Positions 2,725-17,429 of a stretch of DNA of 17,429 bases are shown piece after piece. Both the position numbers and the translations under genes were made by a program. The stretch lies in the NCBI GenBank assembly GCA_902767285.1, contig CACXHC010000004.1, positions 1 to 17,429 of the forward strand, read 5' to 3'. Position 1 is the stretch's first letter, and each line of letters begins with the position of its first letter. Source of the DNA: an uncultured Ruminococcus sp. Lineage in GTDB: Bacteria > Bacillota > Clostridia > Oscillospirales > Acutalibacteraceae. A model generated the notes under the pieces. The model did not search any database, was not told where the DNA came from, and worked only from the letters and a program-made list of their open reading frames with translations.

Positions 2725-4212
2725 TCAAATCATGTTTGTGTATCTCATCAAGAACTCGTCAACTTCACGAGCTGCGGCTCTGCCCTCGGATATAGCCCAT
2801 ACAACAAGGCTCTGCCCACGGTGCATATCGCCTGCGGTGAAAACTTTGTTTGCAGTTGTCTTGTATTTTTCCGGTTCTGTGGCAACATTGTTACGAGGAT
2901 TTGTTTCAACACCAAACGATGATGTTACATATTCTTCAGCTCCAAGAAATCCTGCGGCAATAAGAAGCAAATCACATTCAACAGTATAAACGCTTTCCTC
3001 TATCGGCGTCATGACCATTCTTCCCGAAGTTTCGTCCTTTTTCGGTTCGAGTTTAACGAGTTCGGCTGCTCTGAGATTGCCGTTTTCATCACCGATAAGT
3101 TTTCTGATGGTTGTCTGATAAACTCTGGGGTCGTGACCAAATACGGCGGCTGCCTCCTCCTGACCGTAATCTGTTTTGCAAATTCGGGGCCACTGAGGCC
3201 AAGCGTTGTCGGCGGTTCGTTTATCGGGGAGTTTCGGCATCATTTCAAGTTGAGTTACATTTTTACAGCCGTGGCGGATACATGTTCCTACGCAGTCGTT
3301 GCCCGTATCGCCACCGCCGACAACAAGAACATTTTTATCTTTTGCACTTATAAAATTGCCGTTGTCGTATTGATCGTTCAAAAGAGCTTTTGTTGTGGAT
3401 TTCAGAAAATCAACCGCAAAATGTACGCCGTTGAGTTCTCTGCCTTCGATATTCAAATCACGGGGTTTTGATGCACCACAGCAGAGTACGACCGCATCGT
3501 AATCAGACAAAATTTCATCAACCGAAATATCGGAACCCACGTTGCAGCTTGTTCGGAACACAATGCCTTCTTGCTCCATAAGGTGAATACGGCGGAGAAC
3601 AACGCTTTTATCGAGTTTCATGTTCGGAATACCGTACATAAGAAGTCCGCCGGGACGGTCTTCTCTTTCAAATACAGTAACGTTATGACCTCGTTTGTTG
3701 AGCATCTCGGCACAAGCAAGACCGGACGGCCCCGAACCTATTACAGCTACTTTCTTATCGGTGCGAACAGCAGGCGGATTTGGTTTCATATAGCCGTTTG
3801 CGAATCCGTACTCAATTACAGCAAGCTCGTTGTCGTGAACAGTAACCGGTTTGTCGTTGAGTCCGCAGGTACAGGCAGCCTCGCACAGTGCCGGACAAAC
3901 TCTGCCTGTAAACTCCGGAAAACAGTTCGTTTTGAGCAGACGGCTGAGGGCGTGTTCGTAATGTCCTTTGTATAACTCTTCATTCCATTCGGGGATAAGA
4001 TTATGCAAAGGACACCCCGACACCATACCATTTAATCTTATTGCCGATTGGCAGAACGGCACACCGCAGTTCATACAGCGAGCAGCCTGCTTTTTTCTTT
4101 CCTCCATTGAGAGCGGAGCGTGAAACTCGTTGAAATTTTTTATTCTGTTTTCGGGAGATACAGTCACCGAAGTGACTCTTTCATACTCCATAAATCCGGT
4201 TGGCTTACCCAT
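2725..4212 (-). CDS. gltD: Glutamate synthase (NADPH), small subunit
   Basis: The FAD- and iron-sulfur-containing beta subunit of glutamate synthase, which passes electrons from NAD(P)H to the large subunit. The start is the ATG at 4212, which overlaps the gltB stop by eight bases and follows GGGAG; the longer reading frame upstream lies inside gltB. The product is 495 residues, normal for GltD. Visible in order: an N-terminal cysteine cluster (C46, C49, C54, C67) and a second group near residues 97-116 (NCFPEF, CPALCEAAC) for 4Fe-4S clusters; the FAD dinucleotide motif GSGPSG at about 159-164; the NADPH motif GGGDTG at about 299-304; and the C-terminal AGDMHRGQSLVVWAI segment that closes the FAD site. 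The overlap with gltB suggests translational coupling that keeps the two subunits balanced. Confidence 0.96.
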   Translation of the reverse strand: MGKPTGFMEYERVTSVTVSPENRIKNFNEFHAPLSMEERKKQAARCMNCGVPFCQSAIRLNGMVSGCPLHNLIPEWNEELYKGHYEHALSRLLKTNCFPEFTGRVCPALCEAACTCGLNDKPVTVHDNELAVIEYGFANGYMKPNPPAVRTDKKVAVIGSGPSGLACAEMLNKRGHNVTVFEREDRPGGLLMYGIPNMKLDKSVVLRRIHLMEQEGIVFRTSCNVGSDISVDEILSDYDAVVLCCGASKPRDLNIEGRELNGVHFAVDFLKSTTKALLNDQYDNGNFISAKDKNVLVVGGGDTGNDCVGTCIRHGCKNVTQLEMMPKLPDKRTADNAWPQWPRICKTDYGQEEAAAVFGHDPRVYQTTIRKLIGDENGNLRAAELVKLEPKKDETSGRMVMTPIEESVYTVECDLLLIAAGFLGAEEYVTSSFGVETNPRNNVATEPEKYKTTANKVFTAGDMHRGQSLVVWAISEGRAAAREVDEFLMRYTNMI

Positions 4213-7200
4213 TTTGCATTTCTCCCTTCTTTGATGCGTAAAATGCCTCCAAAACAGCCTGTTCCGCATCAAGACCCTTTTCTTCAAATTTTCCGATAAG
4301 ACCTAACATTGTGTTATAGTCGTTAGGTGTTATCTTTTTGAAATTAGGCAGATAAACATCAAAATTATCAAGCATTCTTTTTGCGAGCAGAGAACCTGTT
4401 GCGGCAAAATGCTTTTCTATCATAGTGTGAAGTTCTTCTATATCGTGTTTCTCCGTGACTTTTCCCATTGTGACAAGTTCCTTGTTAAGTTTCAAATAAA
4501 GGTCGTGGGCCTCATCGTAAACGTATGCGAGTCCACCGCTCATTCCTGCGGCGAAATTTCTGCCTGTTTTGCCGAGAATTACGACTCTTCCGCCTGTCAT
4601 ATACTCACAGCCGTGGTCACCTACACCCTCGCAAACGGCGTATGCACCCGAATTTCTCACGCAGAAACGCTCTCCGGCGATACCATTAACATAAGCCTCG
4701 CCGCTTGTTGCTCCATAAAGAGCGACATTTCCGATAATTATATTATCCTCGGCTTTGAATCTGCTTTCTTTCGGCGGATAAACAATTAATTTGCCTCCGG
4801 AAAGACCTTTTCCGAAATAGTCATTTGAATCGCCTTCGAGTTTCAGCGTAAGCCCCTTCGGAATAAACGCACCGAAAGACTGTCCGCCGCCGCCCATGCA
4901 CTGTACGGTATAGAAATCGTCCTCAAGAGAGTTTCCGAATTTCTCTGTAATAACAGAACCGAATATTGTACCAAATGCACGGTCGGTACTCGAAATATCA
5001 ACTTTAACGGTTTTCTTTGTATGATTTTTGATTGCCTTTGCAAATTCCGGCAGAAGTTTGCTTTCATCGGCTGTTTTTTCAAGACCAAAATTATATATAT
5101 CCTGCGGATCGAATTTTGTTTTCTCGCCGTTTGAAAAATCATGGCTCAATATTCCCGAAAGATCTATCATCTCGGCTCTGTGTGTAACCTGATTTTTCTT
5201 CACACTGAGCAAATCGCATCTTCCAACAAGCTCTGCCACTGTTCTAATGCCAAGACGTGCCATTATTTCTCGCAGTTCTTCCGCAATAAACATCATAAAG
5301 TTTACGATATACTCGGGTTTTCCCATAAAACGCTTTCTGAGTTCGGGATTCTGCGTTGCGATACCTACGGGACAGGTATCGAGATTACAAACACGCATCA
5401 TAACGCAGCCCATAGTAACAAGAGGTGCTGTCGCAAAGCCAAATTCATCGGCTCCAAGCATAGCGGCGATAGCCACATCTCTTCCGCTCATGAGTTTTCC
5501 GTCCGTTTCGATTATGACTCTCGAACGCAGACCGTTTTTGATAAGCGTCTGATGTGTTTCGGCAAGACCAAGCTCCCACGGAAGTCCCGCATTGTGAATA
5601 GAACTTACGGGAGCTGCACCCGTACCGCCGTCATAACCCGATATAAGAACAACTTCCGCACCGGCTTTGGCAACACCTGCGGCGATGGTTCCTACTCCGG
5701 CTTCCGATACCAGCTTAACCGAAATTCTCGCTTTTCTGTTGGCATTTTTCAGGTCGTAGATGAGCTGAGCCAAATCTTCGATAGAGTAAATATCGTGGTG
5801 CGGGGGAGGGGAGATGAGCGACACACCGGGTGTTGAGTATCTGTTTTTAGCTATCCACGGATAAACTTTGTTTCCGGGCAGATGACCACCCTCGCCGGGT
5901 TTTGCTCCTTGAGCCATTTTTATTTGTATTTCTTTGGCACTTAACAAATATTCGCTTGTTACGCCGAATCTTCCCGAGGCAACTTGTTTTATGGCACTGT
6001 TTTTGTTGGTGCCGAGTCTTTCGGGCATTTCACCGCCTTCACCGGAGTTGGATTTTCCTCCGAGCATATTCATAGCTTCAGCCATACACTCGTGAGCCTC
6101 CTGAGAAATAGACCCGTAACTCATAGCACCCGTTTTAAATCTCTTTACGATCTCGCTTGCGGGTTCAACCTCATCTATCGGGATAGGAGTACAGCTGTCG
6201 AAATCAAACGCCATAAGTCCTCTGAGCGTGTGCGGAACGCTTTCGCTGTCCACCATGGAGGTGTATTCCTTAAAACGGGAATAACTTCCTGTTTGAGTTG
6301 CCTCACGCAGAGCGATTATAGTTTCGGGATTGTACATATGATCTTCTTTGTCGTGACCCGAGCGGAGTTTATGAGTGCCTACGCTGTCGGTTGCGGTGTC
6401 AACGCCGAGTCCGAGCGGATCAAAAGCGTGGTCGTGACGCCACTCCACACCTTCGCCGATTTCCTCAAGACCAATGCCGCCCACTCTGCTTACAGTATTT
6501 GTGAAATACTTGTCTATAACATCTTGTCTGATGCCGACTGCTTCGAATATCTGTGACGATTGATAAGAGTGTATTGTAGATATACCCATTTTTGACGCTA
6601 TCTTTACAATGCCGTGAAGAACTGCCGAGTTGTAATCTCTTATAGCTGTGTGATAATCCTTATCGAGCAAGCCTTTGTCGATAAGTTCGGATATACACTC
6701 TTGTGCAAGATACGGGTTGACTGCTCTTGCACCGTAGCCGAGAAGTGCCGCAAAATGATGAACCTCGCACGGCTCCGCACTTTCGAGAATTATCGAAACG
6801 GCGGTACGCTTTTTTGTTCTGATGAGATACTGCTCCATAGCCGAAACAGCAAGCAAAGACGGAATGGCAACATGGTTTTCGTCAACGCCTCTGTCTGACA
6901 AAATAATTATGTTTGCCCCTTTGCGATACTCACGGTCACATGAAACAAAGAGTCTGTCGATCGCACGTTCCAGCGGAGTATTTTTGTAGTACAAAAGCGA
7001 TACCGTTGCCGCTTTGAATCCATGACGGCGAATAGCTTTGATTTTCATTAAATCAACGCTTGTAAGTATTGGGTTGTGTATTTCGAGCATATTGCAGTTT
7101 TCGGCTTTTTCCTCCAGCAGATTACCGTCCGAACCGACAAAAACGGTTGTATCCGTAACTATTTCCTCACGGATAGCGTCTATCGGAGGATTGGTTACTT

Positions 7201-8743
7201 GTGCGAAAATCTGCTTAAAATACGAAAAAAGTGATTGATGTTTCTCTGAAAGAACGGCGAGGGGAATATCGGTACCCATAGCCGCAGTAGGTTCACTTCC
7301 GTTTTTCGCCATAGGCAAAATAGAGTCTTTGATTTGTTCGTAAGTGTATCCAAACGCCTTATAAAGTCTGTCACGCTGTTGTTGAGTGTGGTTTTCGACC
7401 TTATGATTTGGAATGGGCAAATCGGCAAGTTGTACAAGATTTCCGTCAAGCCACTCGCCGTAAGGTTTCTCCATAGCATATCTGTGCTTGCACTCTTCGT
7501 CCGATATAACTTTACGGTTGATAAGATCAACAAGAAGCATTTTGCCCGGACGAAGTCGGCTTTTTGTTATTATATGCTCATTTTCGATTGGCAGAACTCC
7601 GACTTCGGAGGAGAGAATCAGCATATCATCATCGGTGATGTAATAACGTGAGGGGCGAAGTCCGTTTCTGTCAAGCACAGCACCCACCGTATCGCCGTCC
7701 GTGAAAAGAATAGCGGCAGGGCCGTCCCAAGGTTCCATCATAGTGGAGTAGTAATGATAAAAATCACGCTTTTCTCGTGTGATAGTCTTGTCGTTCGCAT
7801 ACGGTTCGGGGATAGTCACCATTACCGCTTTCGGAAGTTCCATTCCGTTCATCATTAAAAATTCGAGCGTGTTGTCGAGCATAGCCGAGTCTGAACCGTT
7901 TGCATTTATGACGGGCAAAACTCTGTCGAAATCGTCCTGCATAACGGGGCTTGTCATAGTTTCCTCACGGGCGAGCATTCTGTCAAAATTGCCTCGTATA
8001 GTGTTTATTTCGCCGTTATGAAGAATCACACGGTTTGGGTGAGCTCGTTCCCAAGACGGATTAGTATTTGTAGAAAATCTTGAGTGAACGAGAGCCAATG
8101 CACTTTTGTAATTTTCGCTCTGAAGGTCGGTGTAGAACTTGCGAAGCTGATCAACAAGAAACATTCCCTTATAAACTATCGTTCTTGATGAGAAAGAGCA
8201 AACATAAGTATTGTCGTTGGATTGCTCAAACTCACGGCGGATAATGTAAAGTTTGCGGTCAAACTCGATACCCGTATTAACATCGAGCGGTTTTTTTACA
8301 AAACACTGCATAATGCGGGGCATACAGTCCAGAGCTTTTTTGCCGATTACCGAACTGTCGATTGGAACATCTCTCCAGCAAAGAAGCTGAACTCCCTCTT
8401 TTTTGCAGATTATCTCAAGCATTTTTTTAGCCTGACTGCGTTTTAGTTCGTCTTGAGGAAAGAAGAACATTCCCACGCCGTATTCTCTTTTTTGAGGAAG
8501 TTCGATTCCCAGCTCCTGTACAGCCGAAAAAAAGAAATCGTGAGATATTTGTACGAGTATCCCAACACCGTCACCTGTTTCGCCCGATGCGTCCATGCCT
8601 GCACGGTGCTGAAGTTTCTCTACAATAGAGAGTGCATCGCTTACTATCTTGTGACTCTGCTCGCCTTTAATACTGACTACGGCACCTATTCCGCAAGCGT
8701 CATGTTCAAATTCGGGTCTGTATAATGTATGTGTTTCATTCAT
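4205..8743 (-). CDS. gltB: Glutamate synthase (NADPH), large subunit
   Basis: The alpha subunit of glutamate synthase: it releases ammonia from glutamine and adds it to 2-oxoglutarate to give two glutamates. At 1512 residues it is full length. A 16-residue propeptide precedes catalytic C17 in HDACGIGAV, so N-terminal processing is expected. The glutamine amidotransferase domain (class II) fills about residues 17-430, with HSRFSTNT and HNGEINT visible. The FMN-binding synthase domain contains [18 protein letters not shown] and GEGGHLPG. The 3Fe-4S cysteines C1113, C1119 and C1124 keep the family spacing (x5, x4). The C-terminal beta-helix has the expected Gly-rich repeats ([19 protein letters not shown]). 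The ATG at 8743 overlaps pyrG by eight bases and has AGGT upstream. No key residue is missing. Confidence 0.97.
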
Positions 8744-10355
8744 TTTTATCTACCTCACTTTGCTGATGTAAAGCGGTTTCAATAAGCCCCTTGAAAAGAG
8801 GATGAGCCTTGTTGGGACGGCTCTTGAACTCGGGGTGAAACTGCACTCCTATATAAAAATCATTTTCGGGAATTTCTATTGTTTCAACTATTTTTTTGTC
8901 GGGAGATGTACCGCCGATAACAAGTCCGTTGCTTGTCATAATATCCGAGTATTCGTTGTTAAATTCGTAACGGTGGCGGTGACGCTCCGATATTTCGGAT
9001 TTGCCGTAGCACTCGTAAAGTTTAGTATTTTCGGTTGTTATGCACGGATACGCCCCGAGTCTGAGCGTACCGCCCTTGTTTACGGAATCGCTTTGATCCG
9101 GCATAAAATCTATTACCTTATACGGTGAATTTTCATCAAATTCGTGTGAATTTGCGTTTTTGAGTCCACACACGTTTCTTGCGTATTCTATAACGGCTAT
9201 CTGCATACCAAGACAAATTCCGAGATACGGCACGTTATTTTCACGGGCATATTTTGCCGAAATTATCATGCCCAATATACCTCTGCTCCCGAACCCTCCG
9301 GGAACTATGATACAATCGCACTTGCCAAGAATCTGCGATACATTGTCGTCTGTTATCATTTCGCTGTCTATCCACTCTATATCGGTATGCGAACCGCAGG
9401 CACATCCGGCATGATGTATCGCCTCGGCTACCGATAAATATGCGTCATGTAGTTGAACATATTTTCCTACTATGCCTACCGTGACATTTTTGCTTCGGCT
9501 TTTGATGCTGTTCAACATTTTTATCCATTCGTCAAGATCGGGTTTAGGAGCATTTATACCGAGCTTTCGACATACCATTCCCGAAAAATTCGCTCTTTCG
9601 AGCATTATTGGAGCTTCGTACAAAACGGGAACGTTTAGATTTTCGATAACGCAATCTTCGGGAACATTACAAAAAAGCGATATTTTTTTGAATATACTGT
9701 CATCAAGCGGTTCATCACATCTCAGCACAATTATATCCGGTTTTATTCCCATTCCCTGAAGTTCTTTTACAGAGTGCTGAACGGGTTTTGTTTTATGCTC
9801 CTGTGAGCATTTCAGATATGGTACAAGCACAACGTGTATGTAACAAACATTTTCGCTTCCGACTTCCAGCCCTACTTGTCGTATTGCTTCGATAAACGGT
9901 TGGCTTTCAATATCACCTGCTGTTCCGCCGATTTCGGTAATTACGATGTCAGCCTCGCTCTTTTTTCCTACATTATATATGAAATGTTTTATTTCGTTTG
10001 TGACGTGCGGTATTACCTGAACGGTTTCGCCAAGAAACTCGCCTCTTCGCTCTTTATTGAGGATATTCCAGTAAACTTTTCCCGTTGTCAAGTTTGAATA
10101 TTTATTTAAATCTTCATCTATAAAACGTTCGTAATGACCGAGATCAAGATCGGTTTCCGCACCGTCCTCGGTTACATAAACCTCACCGTGCTGATACGGA
10201 CTCATCGTCCCGGGATCTACATTTATGTACGGGTCGAGTTTTTGTGCCGCAACCTTTATTCCTCTTGATTTCAGCAGTCTGCCGAGCGATGCTGCTGTTA
10301 TTCCTTTGCCAAGACCGGAAACAACGCCGCCGGTCACGAAAATGTATTTTGTCAT
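8736..10355 (-). CDS. pyrG: CTP synthase
   Basis: Makes CTP from UTP, ATP and glutamine in the cytosol. The product is 539 residues with the expected two parts. The N-terminal amidoligase domain begins [18 protein letters not shown], including the P-loop-like GLGKG segment, and has the [10 protein letters not shown] and [10 protein letters not shown] motifs. The C-terminal class I glutaminase has nucleophile C381 in GICLGMQ and a His-Glu pair in VQFHPEF near residue 515. Two ATG codons stand in tandem (10358 and 10355); the second is preferred for spacing to a weak GGAAAG site. The gene overlaps gltB by eight bases, so it is translationally linked to glutamate synthase, an uncommon partnership. 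Its leader has an inverted repeat and a possible own promoter. Confidence 0.96.
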
Positions 10356-10363
10356 CATCTTTC

Positions 10364-11136: not shown

Positions 11137-11166
11137 TGCCGCACCTCCTCAAATGAGCAAAAAACA

Positions 11167-11246
11167 TTTTCTCTTCTTTTTTTTGAAAAAAAAAGAAGCA
11201 AAAAAAACTTTTACTATATAAAATTTATGTGTTTCAACGAACATTC
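11167..11246 (+). repeat. 80-bp AT-rich dispersed repeat, copy A
   Basis: Nearly identical to 17310-17388 in the same orientation: the copies differ by one A in an A run and one A/T in the ATATAAA(A/T)TTTATG section. It holds a near-perfect inverted repeat of CTTCTTTTTTTT against AAAAAAAGAAG, then CTTTTACTATATAAA and ends in GTGTTTCAACGAACATTC. It lies in the leader of the ANTAR gene, 30 bases before the start codon, in antisense orientation as written here. Confidence 0.85.
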
Positions 11247-11342
11247 TATATTATTATTCCGCAGGTGTAAGTTTATGAACATACAAACTAAAGTGCGAGT
11301 TAGGTACAGGCACCGCCTGCCACAATTAAAGTTTTTTGGAAA

Positions 11343-11389
11343 GGGTTTGGGAAAACCTTTTTTTCAAAAAAGGTTTTCCCAAGAAACCC
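11343..11389. repeat. Long perfect hairpin between glnA and the ANTAR gene
   Basis: The arms at 11347-11363 and 11366-11382 are perfectly complementary over 17 bp (TTGGGAAAACCTTTTTT with its complement) around a two-base loop, and GGGTTT/AAACCC extend the pairing at the base after a small bulge. On the minus strand it starts about 37 bases past the glnA stop. It has no clean U tract after it, so it may attenuate or stabilise the glnA transcript rather than end it. It resembles the hairpin-rich intergenic elements scattered through Clostridia genomes. The rest of the 290-base gap between the two genes holds copy A of the 80-bp repeat and an AT-rich stretch without a convincing gene. Confidence 0.7.
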
Positions 11390-11425
11390 AATTTCTGTGA
11401 AGTTTAATGAAAAAATGCTCATTTA

Positions 11426-12625
11426 TTAATATATTAAAAATCCTAACGGAATATTTGCTTTTATAAAATCGCTCTTCCGTGCAAGAGATACCGCTTTTTC
11501 GTAAGAATCGGGAAGAGCCGTCAGCGTATCCGTTATTTCGCTTTCCGCCGTATAAAGATTTATATTGAGCGGTTCGGGAGGAAGCATATTTTTTTCGATG
11601 CCGTCAAGTGCCGCATTTATCAACAAAGAGTATACGACATAAAGATTTGCTGTCGGGTCGGGAGAACGAAGCTCCATTCTTTTGTATTCGCCCTTTGCTG
11701 CGGGTATTCTTATAAGCTGAGATCGGTTCTCGTGTGACCACGAAACATACTTCGGAGCTTTGTCACACCCGAATCTTTTGTACGACTGCTCGCATGGATT
11801 CAGAAATGCAGTCATCTCGGCAACGTGTGAAAGCACTCCCGCAAGTATTTGCTGAGAATAGTCTGTTCCGTCAGCCGATTTCACCGACATATTTATATGC
11901 AGACCGCTTCCGCTTTTGTTTTCGATCGGTTTTGGCGAGAAATCGGCATAAAGTCCGTTTAAATCGGATATTGAAGAAACAACCGATTTGAACGTCACCG
12001 CATTGTCGGCAGATGTAAGTGCATCGCTGTATCTGAAATCTATCTCGTTTTGTCCCGGCCCCATCTCATGATGCGAACTTTCAGGGAAAATATCCATATC
12101 AAGAAGAGTCAGACATATTTCACGGCGAATATCCGCCCCCTTGTCCTTTGGAGCTATATCCATATACCCCGCATTATCGAAGGGGATTTTTGTTGGATTG
12201 CCGTTTTCATCGCACTTGAACAAATAAAATTCAAATTCGGCACCAAAGTTAAACGTAAGACCTTTTTTTCTTGCTTTCTTGACGGTACATTCGAGCAAAC
12301 GGCGGCTGTCAAGTTCGAACGGCTCGCCGTTCGGTCTGTAAATATTGCAGAACATTCTTGCCACACGTCCTTCGGAAGGTCGCCAAGGCAGAATTTCAAT
12401 TGTCTGCGGAAGCGGTTTTAGGAACAAATCAGATGAAAGCTCATCTCCGAACCCATAAATACTTGATGCGTCAAATGCGATTCCGTACTCAAAAGCTCGC
12501 TCAAGTTCCAACGGCATAATTGAAATATTTTTTTGAGTTCCTGCAATATCAACAAATGCCAATCTGATGAATCTAACATCTTCATCTTCAATGAAATTTT
12601 TTATTTCATTCAAATCATCATACAT
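11426..12625 (-). CDS. glnA: Short type I glutamine synthetase homologue
   Basis: The 399-residue product is clearly of the GS I fold: the N-terminal beta-grasp (FIRLAFVDIAG), catalytic Asp52 in FDASSIYGF, metal ligands E130 and E132 (GAEFEFYLF), E187 and E194 (HHEMGPGQNEIDF), H243 in GSGLH, and ENRSQLIRIP and MELRSPDP in the active site. The ATG at 12625 has GGAGG ten bases upstream and gives the normal N-terminus. Three departures from Bacillus-type GS: the flap motif, usually KRLVPGYEAP, reads KRFGCDKAP, placing Lys289 where the flap Glu stands; the Arg of GFVRIEESD is replaced (GFGDELSSD); and the C-terminus stops about 27 residues early. It may be a divergent enzyme or a regulatory homologue. 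It is followed by the ANTAR gene and preceded by its own promoter and attenuator. Confidence 0.85.
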   Translation of the reverse strand: MYDDLNEIKNFIEDEDVRFIRLAFVDIAGTQKNISIMPLELERAFEYGIAFDASSIYGFGDELSSDLFLKPLPQTIEILPWRPSEGRVARMFCNIYRPNGEPFELDSRRLLECTVKKARKKGLTFNFGAEFEFYLFKCDENGNPTKIPFDNAGYMDIAPKDKGADIRREICLTLLDMDIFPESSHHEMGPGQNEIDFRYSDALTSADNAVTFKSVVSSISDLNGLYADFSPKPIENKSGSGLHINMSVKSADGTDYSQQILAGVLSHVAEMTAFLNPCEQSYKRFGCDKAPKYVSWSHENRSQLIRIPAAKGEYKRMELRSPDPTANLYVVYSLLINAALDGIEKNMLPPEPLNINLYTAESEITDTLTALPDSYEKAVSLARKSDFIKANIPLGFLIY

Positions 12626-12713: not shown

Positions 12714-12771
12714 AAAAATAAAATAGACGTTCACTGCACAAGGGGACACTTTCCCCTTTGTACAATGAACG
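12714..12771 (-). terminator. Intrinsic terminator (attenuator) in the glnA leader
   Basis: On the minus strand the arms beginning CGTTCATTGTACAAAGGGG (12771 down to 12753) and ending TCCCCTTGTGCAGTGAACG pair along their length with two G-U pairs and one bulged A. The U-rich run TCTATTTTATTTTT (12727-12714) follows. It stands between the predicted glnA promoter and the start codon, so it would stop transcription before glnA unless prevented. Its apical loop can also be drawn as a hexaloop AAAGTG, with A at 1 and G at 4. Confidence 0.75.
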
Positions 12772-12784
12772 CCTTTGCTCATCG
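12763..12784 (-). promoter_or_regulatory. Candidate ANTAR-binding hexaloop hairpin, glnA leader
   Basis: On the minus strand CGATGAGC and GTTCATTG pair over 8 bp (two G-U pairs) around the six-base loop AAAGGC, with A at position 1, G at position 4 and a closing C-G pair. These are the known features of ANTAR RNA targets. It begins about seven bases after the predicted start of transcription. Its 3' arm is the 5' arm of the terminator at 12714-12771, so the two structures exclude each other. The loop at the top of the terminator could be the second hexaloop. Confidence 0.6.
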
Positions 12785-12797
12785 ATTCAACTCCTAT

Positions 12798-12826
12798 ATT
12801 GTACTATCATATTGAAGTTTTGTCAA
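12798..12826 (-). promoter_or_regulatory. glnA: Predicted sigma-A promoter of glnA
   Basis: On the minus strand a perfect TTGACA (12826-12821) is followed after exactly 17 bases by TACAAT (12803-12798), one mismatch from consensus. The transcript would begin near 12791, giving a leader of about 165 bases. Confidence 0.8.
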
Positions 12827-13116: not shown

Positions 13117-13145
13117 TTGACAAAAATAATACGAGGGCGTATAAT
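13117..13145 (+). promoter_or_regulatory. glnN: Consensus sigma-A promoter of glnN
   Basis: A perfect TTGACA (13117-13122) and a perfect TATAAT (13140-13145) are separated by exactly 17 bases. Transcription would start near 13152. The spacer contains ATACG-AGGG-CGTAT, a small inverted repeat that could be an operator. Such a strong promoter followed by a strong terminator implies that control acts mainly after initiation. Confidence 0.88.
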
Positions 13146-17260: not shown

Positions 17261-17285
17261 GGGGCTGTGAAAAAACAACAGCCCC
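17261..17285 (+). terminator. Hairpin after amt, possible terminator
   Basis: GGGGCTGT and ACAGCCCC form a perfect 8-bp GC-rich stem with a nine-base loop, 11 bases past the amt stop. It is followed by GGGAAATTTCC, another small palindrome, and not directly by a U tract; T-rich sequence comes only at about 17300. It may act as a weak terminator or as a 3' end stabiliser. Confidence 0.45.
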
Positions 17286-17309
17286 GGGAAATTTCCGATT
17301 TGTTGTTTA

Positions 17310-17388
17310 TTTTCTCTTCTTTTTTTTGAAAAAAAAAGAAGCAAAAAAACTTTTACTATATAAATTTTATGTGTTTCAACGAACATTC
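17310..17388 (+). repeat. 80-bp AT-rich dispersed repeat, copy B
   Basis: Second copy of the repeat at 11167-11246, same orientation, 79 bases, from TTTTCTCTTC to CGAACATTC. Outside these limits the two surroundings have no similarity. It lies in the 3' region of amt, while copy A is in the ANTAR leader, so position relative to genes is not conserved. Confidence 0.85.
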
Positions 17389-17405
17389 CTTAAACTTAAA
17401 CAAAT

Positions 17406-17429
17406 CCGACTGCACAAGTACGCAGTCGG
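17406..17429. repeat. Hairpin at the right edge of the window
   Basis: CCGACTGC and GCAGTCGG form a perfect 8-bp stem with an eight-base loop ending exactly at the window edge. It may be the base of a terminator for a convergent gene or for amt, but the sequence that would follow is outside the window. Confidence 0.4.

What the first reader, a model, noticed from the sequence alone, without database searches (positions are those of the whole stretch)
12714..12826. glnA leader is a candidate ANTAR antitermination switch
Seen: a near-consensus promoter, then within about seven bases an 8-bp hairpin with loop AAAGGC, then an intrinsic terminator whose 5' arm reuses the hairpin's 3' arm (12763-12770). 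The terminator top can also fold with a second hexaloop, AAAGTG. Known: ANTAR proteins (NasR, EutV) recognise hexaloops with A at position 1 and G at position 4, usually in pairs, and prevent termination. Inference: the ANTAR protein encoded directly downstream of glnA binds this leader and turns on its own operon, a positive autoregulatory loop.
Basis: partly seen in the sequence, partly recalled or inferred. Interest (0 to 1): 0.75.

Follow-up and report, generated by a model that had tools for sequence, protein, structure and literature searches.

The report
Single-hairpin ANTAR switch before glnA
The start of this ammonia-assimilation operon's messenger RNA carries one small hairpin that very probably lets an RNA-binding ANTAR protein switch off a built-in stop signal; the same one-hairpin design recurs across many Clostridia, whereas the well-studied ANTAR targets use two hairpins.

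Summary
On the minus strand a promoter (12826-12798) is followed by an 8-bp hairpin with loop AAAGGC (12784-12763); its 3' arm and loop bases 4-6 form the foot of a strong terminator (12774-12714) before glnA. The proposed second hexaloop (AAAGTG) can be drawn but is not conserved. All 13 same-genus glnA leaders that could be fetched carry the hairpin. A model built from 18 leaders matched 118 of 394 genomes of the order and 81 of 391 of the class; 112 of 118 and 78 of 81 of these encode an ANTAR protein. The genes behind it are mostly glutamate synthase, glnA-ANTAR and pyrG. In 101 of 106 leaders with a scorable promoter fewer than 15 nt lie between predicted start and hairpin, so no upstream P1 hairpin fits; 12 of 107 have a downstream A1/G4 hexaloop of 4 bp or more. 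The glnA-ANTAR circuit is known (NitR); I found this single-hexaloop leader class in none of my paper searches. Binding and antitermination are inferred, not shown.

The parts
12798..12826 (-). promoter: TTGACA 12826-12821, 17 nt, TACAAT 12803-12798
   Evidence: 11 of 12 matches; 106 of 107 aligned leaders have a promoter scoring at least 9 of 12 at this place
12791..12791 (-). predicted transcription start (7th base after the -10 box), 7 nt before the hairpin
   Evidence: prediction only
12763..12784 (-). hexaloop hairpin (antiterminator): arms 12784-12777 and 12770-12763, loop AAAGGC 12776-12771 with A1 at 12776 and G4 at 12773
   Evidence: conserved
12714..12774 (-). intrinsic terminator: stem 12774-12725, U-rich tail 12724-12714; shares 12774-12763 with the hairpin
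   Evidence: covarying stem; not listed by the simple scanner
   Evidence: 4-bp register; not conserved
11426..12625 (-). glnA, type I glutamine synthetase, 399 aa
   Evidence: PF00120 and PF03951
10552..11136 (-). ANTAR protein, 194 aa: pseudo-receiver, long helix, ANTAR domain; the proposed antiterminator
   Evidence: PF03861 E 9.1e-16; model like RNA-bound EutV
8736..10358 (-). pyrG, CTP synthase, probably the same operon
   Evidence: PyrG follows ANTAR in many relatives
4205..8743 (-). gltB, large subunit of glutamate synthase
2725..4287 (-). gltD-like small subunit of glutamate synthase (name from reading the translation)
   Evidence: open frame; no family search run

Best explanation
This is an ANTAR-type transcription-antitermination leader with a single hexaloop at the very start of the RNA. 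Shown: promoter, 8-bp A1/G4 hexaloop hairpin, and a terminator that reuses the hairpin's 3' arm and the 3' half of its loop, so that the two folds exclude each other; conservation of all of this; co-occurrence with ANTAR proteins. Inferred: as RNA polymerase leaves the promoter the hairpin folds first. Without active ANTAR protein the later, far more stable terminator strand invades the 3' arm by branch migration from its upper stem and RNA polymerase stops. With active ANTAR protein bound to the loop (G4 in the aromatic pocket) the hairpin is locked, the terminator foot cannot form, and glnA-ANTAR-pyrG-gltB-gltD is transcribed, including the regulator's own gene. The signal is unknown; the receiver domain lacks a usable phosphate site in most relatives, so a partner protein is likelier than a kinase.
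For: Hairpin in 13 of 13 same-genus glnA leaders and 18 of 27 glnA upstream regions in all, window included; in 5 of the other 9 the element heads the same cluster before glutamate synthase genes. Model R1: 118 of 394 genomes of the order, 81 of 391 of the class. ANTAR present in 112 of 118 element genomes against 121 of 276 others; outside the order sample 67 of 70 against 112 of 303. Loop position 1 is A and position 4 is G in 107 of 107 leaders, 89 of them not used to build the model, while position 3 takes all four bases. The four hairpin pairs next to the loop hold in 107 of 107. Loop G4 is paired in the terminator fold in 105 of 107. Terminator stem covaries strongly. The ANTAR residues aligned with EutV's RNA contacts are kept, and the predicted model is closest to RNA-bound EutV, TM 0.79.
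Against: No binding or transcription data. Hairpin covariation is weak because the hairpin hardly varies (95 of 500 shuffles reach its pairing level; 6 of 500 on the larger set). Six of 118 and three of 81 element genomes have no ANTAR match, among them two of one genus with strong elements. 121 ANTAR-bearing genomes of the order gave no element. Fisher tests ignore relatedness. EutV needs both hairpins in its own system (PMC3369931, PMC8934654), so a single one is not known to suffice.
Confidence: 0.83

Rival explanations
1. A classical dual-hexaloop ANTAR leader: the 5' hairpin is P1 and the terminator top (AAAGTG in the window) is P2.
For: In the window a 4-bp hairpin with loop AAAGTG follows after 6 nt. 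A downstream A1/G4 hexaloop of at least 4 bp is in 12 of 107 leaders against 6.4 +/- 2.3 in shuffles, and of at least 3 bp in 27 against 14.8 +/- 3.4. AGTG is in the terminator top of 10 of 14 same-genus glnA leaders.
Against: 95 of 107 leaders lack it; shuffles destroy the terminator's own hairpin, so some excess is expected; AGTG is in only 15 of the other 93.
Confidence: 0.08
2. The hairpin is recognised by something other than an ANTAR protein, or the leader is a protein-free attenuator.
For: Nine element genomes in the two samples without an ANTAR match.
Against: Strong co-occurrence with ANTAR in two samples; A1/G4 rule; ANTAR gene beside glnA; no Rfam match in the leader.
Confidence: 0.06
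3. A leader peptide: the hairpin's ATG (12782-12780) starts a short frame and translation controls the terminator.
For: AGGAG lies 8 nt before an ATG in the window; ATG, GTG or TTG is at this place in 98 of 107 leaders.
Against: An SD-like string is near it in 4 of 107; frame lengths range from 6 to over 200 codons; 9 of 107 have no start codon there; the window's AGGAG overlaps the predicted start of transcription.
Confidence: 0.02
4. Only a terminator with a conserved foot; the hairpin is incidental.
For: Terminator foot and hairpin 3' arm are the same bases.
Against: The hairpin's 5' arm and loop A1 lie outside most of the terminator stem and are conserved with pairing kept; loop positions 5 and 6 change together with the terminator arm while position 4 stays G.
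Confidence: 0.01

Closest known systems
EutV/NasR/AmiR dual-hexaloop ANTAR leaders (Ramesh 2012, PMC3369931; Walshe 2022, PMC8934654)
   Same: Hexaloop with A1 and G4; the hairpin excludes a terminator; ANTAR protein; genes of nitrogen metabolism; glutamine and glutamate synthase leaders already predicted in the 2012 covariance search (its text).
   Different: There P1 recruits and P2, 5-12 nt further on in eut, overlaps the terminator, and both are needed. Here one hairpin, usually at the first bases of the RNA, with 5-9 bp in 101 of 107 leaders, overlaps the terminator.
NitR of Clostridium saccharobutylicum (Stutz 2007; seen only as described and cited in PMC6316151)
   Same: ANTAR protein with the GS/GOGAT gene cluster, reported to act by antitermination under nitrogen limitation. 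Clostridium loci here have the order glnA-ANTAR-gltB.
   Different: I could not see what that paper says of the leader; no hexaloop is mentioned in the passage seen.
NmPAL, an ANTAR-containing light receptor (domain content recalled; PMC11381354 passages)
   Same: Binds a single small RNA hairpin.
   Different: The cases seen are engineered circuits acting on translation, not a natural antitermination leader.
glnA RNA motif of cyanobacteria (PMC2864571 passages)
   Same: Nitrogen-gene leader.
   Different: A different RNA; no Rfam match in this leader.

Membership tests
ANTAR target RNA, dual hexaloop (Ramesh 2012) | hexanucleotide loop with A1 and G4 on a stem of at least 3 bp | tested here: met
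   window; 107 of 107 leaders
ANTAR target RNA, dual hexaloop (Ramesh 2012) | two tandem hexaloop hairpins joined by a short linker | tested here: not met
   weak 4-bp candidate in the window only in part of the genus; absent from 95 of 107; no room upstream in 101 of 106
ANTAR target RNA, dual hexaloop (Ramesh 2012) | hairpin overlaps and excludes an intrinsic terminator | tested here: met
   loop G4 paired in the terminator fold in 105 of 107
ANTAR target RNA, dual hexaloop (Ramesh 2012) | bound by an ANTAR protein | not testable with these tools
   only co-occurrence
ANTAR antiterminator protein | ANTAR domain PF03861 | tested here: met
   57.8 bits, cut-off 27.3
ANTAR antiterminator protein | residues aligned with EutV RNA contacts (K143, K147, Y164, M172) | tested here: met
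   window K143, K147, H164 (H also in AmiR), M172 by the alignments, chain numbering shifted by 2 by me; H164 and M172 invariant in 20 sequences
phosphorylated response regulator (EutV type) | receiver aspartate | tested here: not met
   Y in the window; N in 16, D in 3, Y in 1 of 20; pseudo-receiver as in AmiR
NitR / glnA-ANTAR circuit of clostridia | ANTAR gene next to glnA and glutamate synthase genes | tested here: met
NitR / glnA-ANTAR circuit of clostridia | read-through rises on nitrogen limitation | not testable with these tools
   none

The most novel reading that the evidence does not exclude
A widespread class of single-hexaloop ANTAR leaders exists in Clostridia: one hairpin, made of the first bases of the transcript, both recruits the ANTAR protein and blocks the terminator. 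It coordinates a regulon of ammonia assimilation and amino-group or glutamine-using steps (glutamate synthase, glnA-ANTAR, pyrG, carA, purA, purB/purC, dapF-dapL), which would show that the second hexaloop is not needed for antitermination on a transcribing polymerase. A bolder add-on, for which there is only gene adjacency: glutamine synthetase itself is the partner that holds or frees the pseudo-receiver, as AmiC does for AmiR.
Probability: 0.6. Interest if true: 0.75.

Novelty: new variant of a known kind. Interest (0 to 1): 0.62.

Why it matters
The EutV structure paper (PMC8934654) asks why two hairpins are required if a dimer holds only one, and says more work is needed on what single hexaloops do, expecting them where the time limit of a transcribing polymerase is absent. 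A conserved class of terminators guarded by one hexaloop at the RNA's 5' end speaks directly to that question and offers natural templates to test it. It would also give one shared switch for nitrogen assimilation in a large group of rumen and gut bacteria, and a search model that dual-hairpin searches would miss.

Tried and rejected
Rfam on the whole window at E up to 5 gave 8 weak matches, none in the leader; following Phe_leader in the own genome led nowhere for this question. A pattern search of the own genome found one exact copy and otherwise 3-mismatch hits at control level (15 in all against 14 in the reversed control); R1 found only this copy with weight (next 0.139, its own antisense). 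Leader peptide: rejected. Second hexaloop as conserved element: rejected. Leaders not found upstream of glnA in 9 of 27 regions; 5 of those have the element further upstream in the cluster, one is weak (L060, E 0.03), three have none (L064, L066, L074). Rows dropped: the 37 weakest rows (E above 3.5e-5) were not fetched or read; L154 repeats L118 and was left out; the 107 leaders hold 78 distinct 22-mers, so they are not independent. From I read 40 leaders; two of the 40 have the loop shifted by an insertion but keep A1/G4. A homologue search in the protein database was not possible.

Full report
What is in the sequence. The finding lies on the minus strand upstream of glnA (start 12625). Promoter TTGACA-17-TACAAT at 12826-12798; a hairpin CGATGAGC-AAAGGC-GTTCATTG at 12784-12763; a terminator stem 12774-12725 with a U-rich tail to 12714. 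The hairpin's 3' arm, and loop bases 4 to 6, are the 5' foot of the terminator. The leader folds 5.26 standard deviations below shuffles, and an A1/G4 hexaloop on 8 pairs or more turns up in 0.55% of 2000 shuffles. The simple terminator scanner missed the terminator. No Rfam family matched the leader even at E up to 5.

Surroundings. Downstream on the same strand: glnA, a 194-aa ANTAR protein, pyrG, gltB and a gltD-like gene, then frames read by eye as dapF and dapL. Divergently: type III glutamine synthetase and an ammonium transporter fused to a P-II domain. The glnA-ANTAR gap (11137-11425) holds no terminator-like site, and only promoter-like sites at the level of shuffles.

Conservation. 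I fetched 26 glnA upstream regions from relatives by following the ANTAR protein. With the window, 18 of 27 have the hairpin directly upstream of glnA, including 13 of 13 of the same genus; in five of the other nine the element heads the same cluster in front of split glutamate synthase genes. On the 18-sequence alignment the terminator stem covaries strongly (32 cells with changes on both sides, no shuffle as high). The hairpin is nearly invariant, so its covariation is uninformative there (95 of 500 shuffles reach the pairing level) and modest on 78 sequences (6 of 500). In the larger set of 107 leaders the four pairs next to the loop hold in 107 of 107, with A-U, G-U and five G-C versions of the third pair. 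Loop position 1 is A and position 4 is G in 107 of 107; position 3 takes all four bases; positions 5 and 6 vary a little, and in the alignments they change together with the terminator's 3' arm. That is what one expects if positions 1 and 4 are fixed by a protein and 5 and 6 by the terminator. The model was built from 18 sequences that obey the rule, so the 89 others are biased towards it, though not forced.

Distribution and partner. Model R1 matched 118 of 394 genomes of the order. ANTAR (PF03861) occurs in 233 of the same 394: in 112 of 118 genomes with the element and 121 of 276 without. In a class-wide sample the element is in 81 of 391 and ANTAR in 196, 78 of 81 against 118 of 310; leaving out the 18 genomes shared with the order sample, 67 of 70 against 112 of 303. 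The p-values (1e-24, 2e-21) ignore relatedness and should be read as a strong trend only. Exceptions: G041, G059, G117, G133, G309, G323 and G634, G687, G703. G133 and G309, one genus, have strong elements before a purA-like gene yet no ANTAR match.

Genes behind the element. First recognisable gene within 1900 nt: in 107 leaders, glutamate synthase parts 75, glnA 24, pyrG 3, unassigned 5; in 119 named loci, 74, 23, 2 and 20 (10 of the 20 have under 800 nt downstream); in 40 class leaders, 22, 9, 1 and 8. Of the unassigned, Pfam named one each as adenylosuccinate synthetase (L106), GATase_2 (L120), DAP epimerase (L172), carbamoyl-phosphate synthase small chain (L221) and SAICAR synthetase (L236), and nothing for L191 (the last three entries were pieces of 130 residues). 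By eye only, from translations: purA in L149, L194, L287; carA in L234, L272, L278; purB-purA in L339; purC-purB in L334; an asparagine synthetase in L335; MurT-GatD in L342. G054 carries three elements, before glnA-ANTAR, gltB and dapF: genes that lie in one cluster in the window.

One hexaloop, not two. I scored a promoter in 106 of 107 leaders. The predicted +1 lies a median of 1 nt before the first paired base of the hairpin; in 101 of 106 fewer than 15 nt are available, the least a 3-bp hexaloop hairpin plus a 3-nt linker would need. So an upstream P1 is excluded unless the promoter is misread in nearly all. Downstream, an A1/G4 hexaloop of at least 4 bp is in 12 of 107 (shuffles 6.4 +/- 2.3), of at least 3 bp in 27 (14.8 +/- 3.4). 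That is an excess, told here against my reading; shuffling destroys the terminator hairpin, and most leaders still have none. AGTG recurs in the terminator top of 10 of 14 same-genus glnA leaders but 15 of 93 others, so a genus-level second contact is not excluded.

Protein. The ANTAR protein matches NasR, AmiR and EutV in the PDB by sequence. Aligned with EutV it keeps K143, K147 and M172 and has H164 where EutV has Y and AmiR H (the shift of two between chain and paper numbering is mine). In 20 relatives the receiver aspartate position is N in 16, D in 3 and Y in the window. A model with mean pLDDT 95.4 is most like RNA-bound EutV among the solved structures listed (TM 0.79; AmiR 0.60). ANTAR follows glnA on the same strand in 27 of 27 fetched loci with both and 29 of 29 complete cases in the named loci.

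How it probably works. The hairpin folds as soon as it leaves the polymerase. Without protein the more stable terminator takes over its 3' arm. Bound ANTAR protein locks the hairpin, including the G4 that would otherwise sit at the terminator foot (105 of 107 folds), and transcription goes on into glnA and the regulator's own gene. The order of events and the protein's role are inferred from EutV (PMC3369931 sections 7 and 10; PMC8934654 abstract, sections 23, 24 and 26). The signal is unknown.

Known and new. That an ANTAR protein governs GS/GOGAT genes in a Clostridium by antitermination is in print (NitR; passages of PMC6316151 and PMC4676874; the primary paper was not available), and the 2012 search already reported dual-hairpin hits before glutamine and glutamate synthase genes. 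What I did not find in searches is a leader class with one hexaloop at the 5' end that guards a terminator. PMC8934654 itself defines the minimal binding motif as one hexaloop and leaves open what single ones do. Hence: new variant of a known kind.

Noticed in passing
L069:3660-4241 (own genome, contig C280): A second ANTAR protein, about 30% identical, follows frames that read as aroA, aroC and a chorismate mutase/prephenate dehydratase and precedes a diacylglycerol-kinase-like frame (names by eye): a possible ANTAR regulator of aromatic amino acid synthesis.
   Followed up: partly
window 13117-13145 (+): The divergent glnN (type III glutamine synthetase) has a perfect 12 of 12 promoter about 90 nt before its start; model R1 finds no element there.
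   Followed up: no
window 17267-17429 (-): An A/T-rich hairpin region after the amt gene matches Phe_leader weakly (E 0.15); eight similar weak places in the own genome, several close to contig ends, suggest a repeated hairpin.
   Followed up: no
L106 and L149: A genus with strong elements before purA (L106 by Pfam; L149 by eye) but no ANTAR match in its two genomes: a lost or very diverged regulator, or another protein reading the hairpin.
   Followed up: partly
L342, L335, L339, L334: Class-level elements precede frames that read by eye as MurT-GatD, asparagine synthetase, purB-purA and purC-purB: the regulon may reach glutamine-using steps of cell-wall and purine synthesis.
   Followed up: partly
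L046, L048, L049, L054: In four same-genus loci the ammonium transporter-PII gene lies near glnA; in three of them it is on the same strand.
   Followed up: no
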